Origin: Desulfofundulus salinus
GTDB lineage: Bacteria; Bacillota; Desulfotomaculia; Desulfotomaculales; Desulfovirgulaceae
Assembly (NCBI RefSeq): GCF_003627965.1
Contig: NZ_RBWE01000001.1
Span: 2,623,330 to 2,687,329 of the forward strand
Reading direction: 5' to 3'
DNA: 64,000 nt
A model generated the notes under the pieces. That model made no database searches and was not told the origin of the DNA. It was given only the letters and a program-made list of their open reading frames with translations. The translations under genes and the position numbers were made by a program. Shown here piece by piece: positions 30,187-43,003 of the stretch (positions are counted from its first letter, which is position 1; every line of letters begins with the position of its first letter).

Positions 30187-30310
30187 AGTCAATGTTCCTC
30201 TCACCTCCGTCTCGGTCCTTCCCGGCTCCAAGCGGCAAAACGTATTTAGTTTTAGAGGTACTCTTAATAAGAGGTATGGTTCCCGCGGGGATACCATCCC
30301 ATGGATAAAT
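30187..30310 (-). ncRNA. Structured 5' leader of the pan operon, candidate cis-regulatory RNA
   Basis: Downstream of a promoter-like TTGTCT-18-TAAAAT (near 30310-30340), the minus-strand transcript begins with a hairpin with bulged adenines at 30276-30297 (ATGG..TCCC/GGGA..CCAT). A second small hairpin CTCTT/AAGAG and a G-rich section follow, before the terminator hairpin. The layout of aptamer-like structure plus terminator fits a riboswitch. The Pan RNA motif known from pantothenate genes of Firmicutes is the natural candidate, but I cannot confirm its consensus by eye; a T-box is less likely. Confidence 0.45.
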
Positions 30311-40453: not shown

Positions 40454-40487
40454 AGAAGAAAAGGAGTGGCCCCTGCCGCCACTCCTT
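40454..40487 (-). terminator. Terminator after ndk
   Basis: AAGGAGTGG (40461-40469) and CCACTCCTT (40479-40487) form a 9-bp stem; on the minus strand TTTTCTTC follows. The hairpin overlaps the ndk stop codon by two bases. Confidence 0.7.
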
Positions 40488-40935
40488 ATTCATAAATCCA
40501 GCGGTCCACATCTCGCTGGTAATCCACCAGTTCTTCCGGGGAAAAGAAAAGGTTGATTTCCCGCCCGGCACTGGCCGGGGAATCGGAGCCATGGACCACA
40601 TTGCGGCCAATGTCCATGCCGTAAGTGGCCCGGATCGTCCCGGGAGCCGCCTTCAAGGGATTGGTAGCCCCCATCATTTCCCGTACGGTAGAGACCGCAT
40701 CCTTCCCTTCCAGCACCATGGCCACCACCGGCCCCGAGGTAATGTAATCGACCAGGGGGCCAAAGAAGGGTTTGTCCTTATGCTCTCCGTAATGTTTTTC
40801 CGCCAGATCCCGCGGAATGCGCATCATTTTCAGGCCGACAATCTTTAGCCCTTTCTTCTCAAAACAGGCAATAATATTCCCTACCAGGTTTCGCTGTACA
40901 CCATCGGGTTTAATCATTACAAAGGTCCGTTCCAT
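40486..40935 (-). CDS. ndk: Nucleoside diphosphate kinase
   Basis: 149-aa NDK equalising nucleoside triphosphate pools. [22 protein letters not shown] at the start, active-site histidine in [20 protein letters not shown], and [22 protein letters not shown]. Normal length. AGGAGGAG before ATG. Confidence 0.98.
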
Positions 40936-40973
40936 ATACGACTCCTCCTGTATGTAATTACCGGAGCAGTGAA

Positions 40974-41084
40974 ACGTAAATATTTAATGACCCCGGTTGG
41001 ATGCGGCGCTGTCCTCGCTTACTCCAGTGCTTCGCGCCGACAGCACCGCATCCTTGTCATAACGGCTTTCCTGAATATTTACGT
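40974..41084. repeat. Nested inverted repeat between ndk and ftsH
   Basis: An outer perfect pair of 11 bp (40974-40984, ACGTAAATATT, with 41074-41084) encloses an inner 15-bp pair with one mismatch (40999-41013 with 41039-41053, GGATGCGG...GCTGTC). The whole could fold as one long hairpin or cruciform with a 25-nt loop. It is too long and too structured for a simple terminator and has no T run. A miniature element or a structured RNA are both possible. Confidence 0.65.
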
Positions 41085-41101
41085 GAAACAGCCCCCAGCG
41101 T

Positions 41102-42934
41102 TTAATTCCTGGCGCTGTGCTCCTCTTCCCCGGCCTGTTTCATCAGGGCGGCAAATTCCTCTGCCTCCAGGGTTTCTTTCTCAAAGAGGGTTTTGGCCAC
41201 CAGGTGCAGCGTATCCATGTGCTTTTCCAGAAGCTCTTTGGCCCGGTCGTAACAGCTTTCAATCATGCGCCGGACTTCCTTGTCGATGGCCGCGGCCACT
41301 TCCTCGCCGTAGTTCCGGTCCCGGGCCAGGTCCCGCCCTAAAAATACCGTTTCCTGTTTACGTCCCAGGGTCATGGGACCAATCTCTTCGCTCATGCCGT
41401 ACTCCATAACCATGCGGCGCACAATTTCGGTTGCCCGCTCCAGGTCGTTCTGGGCGCCGGTGCTTATTTCTTTCAACACCAGGGCCTCAGCCACCCGACC
41501 GGCCAAAAGCATGGTCACCTGGTCTAAGAGCATGGAGCGGGTCATGTAATAGCGGTCTTCCTTGGGCAAAAGCAGGGTGTATCCCCCGGCCCTGCCCCGG
41601 GGAATGATGGAAACCTTGTGCACCGGATCCGTATTGGGCAGGAGATAGCCCACCACCGCATGGCCGGCTTCGTGATAGGACACCAGTTTCTTTTCCTGTT
41701 CACTGATGACCTTGGATTTTTTCTCCGGGCCGGCAATCACCCGTTCAATGGAGTCCTCCAGTTCCCGCATGGTAATCTGGTTTTTATTGTTGCGGGCGGC
41801 CAGAAGGGCGGCCTCGTTCACCAGGTTTGCCAGGTCGGCACCGGTAAAACCGGGAGTACGCCGGGCCAGCACATCCAGGTCCACGTCCGGGGCCAGGGGT
41901 TTACCCCGCACGTGCACCTTGAGAATCTCCTTGCGTCCCACCACGTCGGGGATGTCCACCACCACCTGCCGGTCAAAGCGGCCCGGTCTTAACAGGGCGG
42001 GGTCCAGGATATCCGGCCGGTTGGTGGCGGCAATGATGATGATCCCTTCGTTGGGGCTGAAGCCGTCCATTTCCACCAGGAGCTGGTTCAGGGTTTGCTC
42101 CCGCTCGTCGTGGCCGCCACCCAGGCCTGCCCCCCGCTGCCGGCCCACGGCATCAATTTCGTCTATGAAAACAATGCAGGGGGCATTCTTCTTGGCCTGG
42201 TCAAAGAGGTCCCGCACCCGGGAAGCGCCAACACCCACAAACATCTCCACGAAATCCGAACCGCTGATGCTAAAAAAGGGCACTCCGGCCTCCCCGGCCA
42301 CGGCCCTGGCCAGAAGGGTCTTGCCCGTCCCGGGCGGCCCGTAGAGGAGCACCCCTTTGGGAATGCGGGCCCCCAGCTCGGCAAACTTCTTGGGGTTTTT
42401 CAGGAACTCCACAATCTCCTGCAGCTCTTCCTTGACCTCATCGGCACCGGCTACATCTGCAAAGGTTACCCGTTTTTTATCGTCGGTATGCAGGCGGGCC
42501 CGGCTTTTGCCGAAGGACATCACCCGGTTGCCACCGCCCTGGGTTTGCTGCATCATGAAGAAGAAAAGCAACACAAAAATTAAAATGGGCAAAAGGCTGG
42601 TCAGGATGTTAGCCCACCAGCCCGGGGAGGGGGGCTCTTGAATTTTCACCTCAACCCCTTTTTCCAACAAAAAAGCGGCTATCTGGGCATCATTTTTTAA
42701 CCCCGTAACCTGAAACTTAATACCGTTTTTCGTTGTTCCGGTGATCAGGTTTGTATGTTCCCGGGACTGAATGGTCACTTCCTGAACCTGGCCCTGATTT
42801 ACTGCCTGGTAAAACCTGTTGTAAGTCCAGTCTTCCATCCCGGTAGTAGGAGGCTGGGTATATTTAATCAGCATTATAATAACGAGCACGATCAGCAGAT
42901 ATATACTCAAATTTTTCAGGACCTTGCTCAACAA
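41102..42934 (-). CDS. ftsH: ATP-dependent zinc metalloprotease FtsH
   Basis: About 610-aa membrane AAA+ protease. TM1 is near the N-terminus, an extracytoplasmic domain follows, and TM2 ([19 protein letters not shown]) is near residue 120. Walker A GPPGTGKT, Walker [21 protein letters not shown] and the zinc motif HEAGH follow. It degrades membrane and regulatory proteins and in Bacillus is needed for sporulation. I prefer TTG at 42934 because AGAGGAG lies just upstream; a TTG 3 bp later is equally possible. Follows tilS as in many Firmicutes, without the usual hpt between them. Confidence 0.97.
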
Positions 42935-43003
42935 AGCCACTCCTCTCGACAAAGCCAGTCAATTCAACCATAAGCTTTATTATAACATATTTACGGTCCT
43001 GTT

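What the first reader, a model, noticed from the sequence alone, without database searches (positions are those of the whole stretch)
40974..41084. 110-bp nested inverted repeat between ndk and ftsH
An outer 11-bp and inner 15-bp pair could form one long hairpin. It is not a standard terminator and may be a miniature transposable element or a structured RNA.
Basis: seen in the sequence. Interest (0 to 1): 0.5.

Follow-up and report, generated by a model that had tools for sequence, protein, structure and literature searches.

The report
IS66-type miniature mobile element
The hairpin between ndk and ftsH is one shortened copy of a miniature mobile DNA element found at dozens of places in this bacterium and in its relatives; it carries the end sequences of a known transposon family (IS66) that probably moves it, so it is a new family of an ordinary kind, with an unusually clear record of insertion, shrinkage and nesting.

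Summary
The element is 40976-41082 (107 bp): ends GTAAATATT.../...AATATTTAC, an inner 20-bp arm pair, and a flanking direct repeat GTGAAAC. It is not single-copy: at least 49 places in its own genome; 26 of 60 genomes searched (home genome included) match, all 6 Desulfofundulus among them. Of 29 own-genome copies with both ends, 16 have an 8-bp target-site duplication (at most 1 mismatch), with a peak at exactly 8. One insertion is absent from two congeners, which keep a single copy of the target. The ends match, over 18-22 bp, those of IS66-family transposons from other families of the order (transposase plus DruA-domain ORF); four such elements have exact 8-bp duplications. This is a MITE mobilised, or once mobilised, by an IS66-type (ISBst12-like) transposase. 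In one congener the orthologous ndk-ftsH copy is 309 bp long, so the window copy is best read as an in-place deletion derivative broken at an 11-bp direct repeat. 'Miniature transposable element' is right; 'structured RNA' has no positive support. New member of a known kind. Unusual: nested palindromes, an order-wide core under differing ends, and a different hairpin in the same gap in sister species.

The parts
40976..41082 (.). 107-bp MITE copy (short form)
   Evidence: ends, repeats and own-genome copies:
40976..40988 (+). left terminal repeat GTAAATATTTAAT (2 mismatches to GTAAATATTCAGT)
41070..41082 (-). right terminal repeat, read inwards GTAAATATTCAGG (1 mismatch)
40969..40975 (+). flanking direct repeat GTGAAAC, left copy (probable remnant of the 8-bp target duplication)
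   Evidence: in strict 8-bp register the flanks match only 2 of 8
41083..41089 (+). flanking direct repeat GTGAAAC, right copy
40999..41018 (+). inner arm, left
41034..41053 (+). inner arm, right
41039..41049 (+). GACAGCACCGC, deletion junction: the 309-bp orthologue in G001 has two such repeats (GACAGC[A/G]CCGC) 201 bp apart
40486..40935 (-). ndk (neighbour; starts 40 bp from the element)
41102..42952 (-). ftsH (neighbour; its stop lies 19 bp from the element; start codon not checked)

Best explanation
A non-autonomous miniature inverted-repeat transposable element. Its terminal repeats (GTAAATATTCAGT[G/A]AACC..., 13-22 bp) are the recognition ends of an IS66-family, ISBst12-like transposase, which inserts it with an 8-bp target duplication. 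The full family member is about 305-317 bp, a stack of palindromes between those ends. The window copy is a 107-bp derivative that lost about 200 bp in place by deletion between the 11-bp repeats GACAGCACCGC and GACAGCGCCGC, probably by hairpin-promoted replication slippage. Shown here: copies, ends, target duplications, unoccupied sites, a long orthologue at this very site. Inferred: that an IS66-type transposase is what moves it, and the slippage mechanism. It most likely has no dedicated job at ndk-ftsH; at most the transcribed hairpin alters mRNA between the two genes.
For: At least 49 own-genome places. End motif 150 hits against 22 for the reversed control. 8-bp duplication with at most 1 mismatch in 16 of 29 copies and exact in 10 of 29; other lengths 0-4 of 29; re-paired flanks mean 0.045, maximum 1 in 200 shuffles. 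Copy at C1:28981 absent in G001 and G004, whose flank matches overlap by exactly 8 bp and keep one target copy. Long ends match IS66/DruA elements L266, L267, L268, L269, L273 over 18-22 bp at 91-95%; exact 8-bp duplications at L266, L268, L269, L272; PF03050 and DruA domains. Orthologous long copy (309 bp) in G001. Published ISBst12-group ends GTAACTGCTCAGCA with an 8-bp repeat (PMC12898284, passages).
Against: The window copy has a 7-bp repeat out of strict 8-bp register (2 of 8 in register). 13 of 29 copies lack a duplication of at least 7 of 8. No IS66 with these ends was found in the home genome or genus: genus IS66 ends are GTAAGCG...; only weak relics resemble the partner. L265, L273 and L274 have the ends but no duplication. 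Beyond the ends the MITE shows no real similarity to the IS elements, only 13-18 bp matches. No element-free ndk-ftsH gap that would show the original target was identified. Other transposase families were not searched.
Confidence: 0.9

Rival explanations
1. The hairpin is a functional structured RNA or processing signal in the ftsH-ndk transcript, kept by selection; its mobile origin is incidental (exaptation).
For: All 6 genus genomes searched carry some hairpin in this gap: this MITE (short or long) in 3 and a different 70-bp-gap hairpin CCCAGCACTCAAC... in 3. Folding z-scores -5.0 and -4.6.
Against: The same structure sits at dozens of other sites. The two hairpins are unrelated in sequence and D. 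thermobenzoicus L085 shows neither. No Rfam match. 1 of 38 pairs with a double change in 7 copies (weak test).
Confidence: 0.07
2. The palindromic core, not the GTAA ends, is the real mobile unit (REP-like or hairpin element), and the ends are acquired.
For: Core pieces recur across the order with other ends or none; one palindrome is nested in another.
Against: The 8-bp duplication peak is flush with the GTAA ends; the C1:28981 insertion as read in congeners begins and ends at the GTAA ends. No RAYT-type transposase was looked for.
Confidence: 0.05
3. An intrinsic terminator between ftsH and ndk.
For: G+C-rich inner stem.
Against: No T run after the stem on either strand (read; terminator scan not run); dispersed copies and target duplications are left unexplained.
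Confidence: 0.02

Closest known systems
IS66 family, ISBst12 group (ISDge4, PMC12898284; here L266, L268, L269, L272)
   Same: GTAA-type ends followed by a TCAG motif (ISDge4: GTGACTACTCAGCA / GTAACTGCTCAGCA), 8-bp duplication (passages)
   Different: Those are full transposons of 2.6-3.3 kb with a transposase (and here a DruA-domain ORF; ISDge4 a single ORF); the MITE has no gene and shares only the ends
Genus-own IS66 elements (L031, L032, L226, L227)
   Same: GTAA start; 8-bp duplications AGATCGAA and GAAAAAGC at L226 and L227
   Different: Ends continue GTAAGCGTCAAAC / GTAAGCGTAAAAT, unlike GTAAATATTCAGT
MITEPsy1 of Pseudomonas syringae (PMC3189936, passages)
   Same: About 100 nt, no gene, ends like those of a full IS (ISPsy2), target duplication; shown there to transpose
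   Different: IS5-like ends and 4-nt duplication; no sequence comparison made here

Membership tests
MITE (non-autonomous DNA transposon) | short, terminal inverted repeats, no transposase gene | tested here: met
   107 bp, 9-bp perfect end pair; the one overlapping ORF (40969-41409 +) only runs antisense into ftsH; Rfam/ORF inspection shows no gene inside
MITE (non-autonomous DNA transposon) | dispersed multicopy | tested here: met
   at least 49 places in the own genome
MITE (non-autonomous DNA transposon) | constant-length target duplication and unoccupied sites | tested here: met
   for the family: 16 of 29 at 8 bp, C1:28981 unoccupied in G001 and G004. For the window copy itself: 7-bp repeat out of register, no empty allele
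IS66-derived (ISBst12-like) element | ends matching an IS66 transposon | tested here: met
   18-22 bp at 91-95% to L266-L269 and L273
IS66-derived (ISBst12-like) element | 8-bp target duplication | tested here: met
   L266, L268, L269, L272
IS66-derived (ISBst12-like) element | mobilised in trans by an IS66 transposase | not testable with these tools
   needs a transposition assay; no partner with these ends found in the genus
REP/REPIN elements | short extragenic palindromes without target duplication, tied to a RAYT transposase | tested here: not met
   8-bp duplications are present; RAYT itself not searched
Known structured RNA (Rfam) | match at gathering score | tested here: not met
   no match at this place; long form only chance-level
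Intrinsic terminator | GC stem followed by a T run | tested here: not met
   read; scan tool not run

The most novel reading that the evidence does not exclude
A modular, 'Russian-doll' family of mobile palindromes: an order-wide conserved palindromic core (short pieces up to 97% identical between families) travels under different ends, is repeatedly filled by a second hairpin element (CCCAGCACTCAC...GTGAGTGCTGGG) that replaces core sequence rather than duplicating a target, and is repeatedly emptied by deletion at the same short repeats. The core would then have a role of its own, for example as a transposition or replication-fork signal, rather than being filler.
Probability: 0.2. Interest if true: 0.55.

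Novelty: new member of a known kind. Interest (0 to 1): 0.3.

Why it matters
It turns an unexplained hairpin into an annotated mobile-element family of Desulfofundulus and its order, with a transposase class that can be tested. One insertion site seen in several states across the genus (unoccupied, 107 bp, about 217 bp, about 661 bp) is a clear natural record of how bacterial MITEs insert, shrink and collect nested hairpins. IS66-derived MITEs did not appear in the searches run, nor any paper with both 'miniature inverted-repeat' and 'Desulfotomaculum'; the library holds open-licence PMC papers only.

Tried and rejected
Rejected: Rfam families. The genus's own IS66 as the source of the ends, because its ends are GTAAGCG.... 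Presence on sequenced plasmids or phages: no blastn match of the long form at 1e-5 in either collection. A full-length autonomous copy among 20 own-genome stretches, most of them around end motifs listed: no element-sized end pair was seen.

Incomplete: transposase searches covered PF03050 and one IS66 protein only; IS256, ISL3, IS1595 and others were not searched. Occupancy in congeners was examined for two copies besides the window's. At the second, C1:2445433, G001 and G005 lack the element but keep 34 bp between the flank matches; G003 holds an unrelated tandem of CCCAGCACTCACC-type hairpins, and G004 a core-plus-hairpin composite without GTAA ends, so this site shows hairpin turnover, not a clean empty allele. 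In comparing 29 own copies with 36 fetched G001 loci, 7 of 29 matched on both flanks and 1 on one flank; the other 21 are unmatched, not shown empty. Position relative to genes was not measured across copies. Terminator scan, structure prediction and fold search were not used.

Rows dropped before counts: 2 of 31 end pairs (overlapping alternatives at 2442532 and 2539431). The fold test used 7 short copies of my choosing, one orientation each.

Full report
WHAT IS THERE. The window lies in a Desulfofundulus genome (G000, 2.89 Mb; genus inferred from the nearest named ndk loci: D. thermosubterraneus 98%, D. australicus 95%, a Tomsk MAG 95%, D. thermobenzoicus 92%). Between ftsH and ndk, both on the - strand, sits a 107-bp unit, 40976-41082. 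It begins GTAAATATT and ends AATATTTAC, encloses a second inverted repeat (40999-41018 / 41034-41053), and is flanked on both sides by GTGAAAC. Folding energies are well below dinucleotide shuffles on both strands.

IT IS REPEATED. Blastn of the unit and of a long relative (L009) against the own genome gave 79 and 66 matches at permissive E-values. The stronger rows merge into 49 places, a lower bound because only 40 candidates were scored per search. The end motif GTAAATATTCAGT with up to 2 mismatches occurs 150 times, against 22 for the reversed-pattern control. Two main sizes exist, about 102-108 bp and 305-317 bp, with other lengths from 57 to 289 bp.

IT DUPLICATES 8 BP. In the own-genome stretches held (181,289 bases), 29 elements have both ends. 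At duplication length 8, 16 of 29 flank pairs match with at most one mismatch and 10 of 29 exactly. At lengths 4, 5, 6, 7, 9, 10, 11 and 12 the counts are 4, 0, 1, 2, 1, 0, 0 and 0 of 29. Flanks re-paired between elements give a mean of 0.045 and a maximum of 1. The window copy is one of the imperfect ones: 2 of 8 in strict register, 7 of 7 for GTGAAAC, as a 1-bp loss beside the left end would leave it (inference).

OCCUPIED AND UNOCCUPIED SITES. At C1:28981 (duplication GAATAATG) the element is absent from G001 and G004: their two flank matches overlap by exactly 8 bp and they keep one copy, GAGTAATG and GAATAATG. G002 also lacks it, at 78-80% flank identity with 11 bp between the flank matches. 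G005 has a unit of about 217 bp there with one nested CCCAGCACTCAC hairpin; G003 has one of about 661 bp with three. The second copy tested, C1:2445433, is less clean. G001 and G005 lack the element but have 34 bp between the flank matches. G003 holds an unrelated tandem of CCCAGCACTCACC-type hairpins, and G004 a core-plus-hairpin composite without GTAA ends.

THE WINDOW COPY IS A SHORTENED ONE. At the orthologous ndk-ftsH gap G001 carries a 309-bp form: 339 bp between anchors against 137 in the window, with flanks 95-96% identical over 400 bp each. The long form holds GACAGC[A/G]CCGC twice, 201 bp apart; the window form holds one, GACAGCACCGC. G002, identical over 204 of 204 bases here to D. 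australicus L083, also has a short form, but with GACAGCGCCGC and a duplicated left end. G002 is the more distant genome (87% against 94-96%), so two separate deletions at the same repeats are the simpler reading (inference); a later base change or gene conversion is not excluded. At C1:28981 the own copy is again short where G003 and G005 hold longer forms.

WHO MOVES IT. IS66-family transposases (PF03050) were found in 58 of 113 order genomes. Among 40 loci (those) one element, L265, had MITE-like ends on both sides. I then fetched 20 further places picked by hand from the rest, mostly weaker-scoring ones. Of these, L266, L267, L268, L269, L272, L273 and L274 have paired ends of this type. 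Exact 8-bp duplications flank L266, L268, L269 and L272, but not L273, L274 or L265; L267 fills its whole contig. L278 has a related end type, GTAACTGCTCAGG / GTAACTACTCAGC, with an exact 8-bp duplication. The long MITE's ends match L266, L267, L268, L269 and L273 over 18-22 bp at 91-95%, and L265 over 14 bp; apart from ends only 13-18 bp matches to L272 and L274 were seen. A DruA (PF14236) ORF was found in all six elements tested: L265, L266, L268, L269, L272, L273. Published ISDge4, of the ISBst12 group of IS66, has ends GTGACTACTCAGCA / GTAACTGCTCAGCA and an 8-bp repeat (PMC12898284, passages only). In the own family (9 genomes) only relics resemble L265's transposase closely: 31 aa at 61-65% in three congeners, and 122 aa at 53% with two stops plus 36 aa at 58% in G008. 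The partner seems lost, or is missing from the genomes held.

LAYERS. Inside the GTAA ends lies a palindromic core (GGATGCGG... or GGCACGG...) with further inverted repeats. Core pieces recur in other families of the order, up to 97% identical over short stretches, with variable middles: 26 of 60 genomes match, home genome included. In the own genome some cores match without the ends. A second hairpin element of about 96 bp (CCCAGCACTCAC...GTGAGTGCTGGG) has 11 matches in the own genome, several inside this family. In the cases read by eye it replaces core sequence instead of duplicating it. A hairpin with similar ends (CCCAGCACTCAAC...) fills the ndk-ftsH gap in G003, G004, G005, L082 and L084.

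RIVALS. A regulatory RNA is the main alternative: all 6 genus genomes searched have some hairpin in the gap. But D. thermobenzoicus L085 shows neither element, covariation is nearly absent (1 of 38 pairs, 7 sequences; 241 of 266 cells paired), and the same fold sits at dozens of other sites. REP-type and terminator readings are contradicted by the duplications and the lack of a T run.

LITERATURE. No paper in the library held both 'miniature inverted-repeat' and 'Desulfotomaculum'. Searches for IS66 with MITE terms listed no paper that, in its title, abstract start or the passages I read, describes an IS66-derived MITE; most listed papers I saw only as listings. The library lacks most subscription journals, so this is weak evidence of novelty. 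MITEPsy1 shows that a 100-nt bacterial MITE with the ends of a full IS can move (PMC3189936, passages).

VERDICT. It is a new family of a known kind, with an unusually legible history.

Noticed in passing
L265, L266, L268, L269, L272, L273 (unnamed order relatives): The IS66-type elements with these ends carry a DruA-domain (PF14236, named after the Druantia defence system) ORF next to the transposase, 6 of 6 tested. No paper held both IS66 and DUF4338 or DruA. It may be a transposition accessory protein.
   Followed up: partly
L174:995-1090; 11 places in the own genome: A second hairpin element, CCCAGCACTCAC...GTGAGTGCTGGG, about 96 bp, often nested in the MITE and seeming to replace rather than duplicate sequence; how it moves is unknown.
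   Followed up: partly
ndk-ftsH gap, window 40961-41097, and L165, L166, L167, L082, L084: Sister species carry a different hairpin (CCCAGCACTCAAC...) in exactly this gap: a hotspot for hairpin elements, or a need for some hairpin there.
   Followed up: partly
window 30203-30300 (-): Rfam pan motif (RF01749), 55.5 bits against a gathering score of 36.2.
   Followed up: no
L031:843-942 and L032:2919-3018 (own genome): Both own IS66 transposase copies abut a run of 100 N, so one end of each is unreadable.
   Followed up: no
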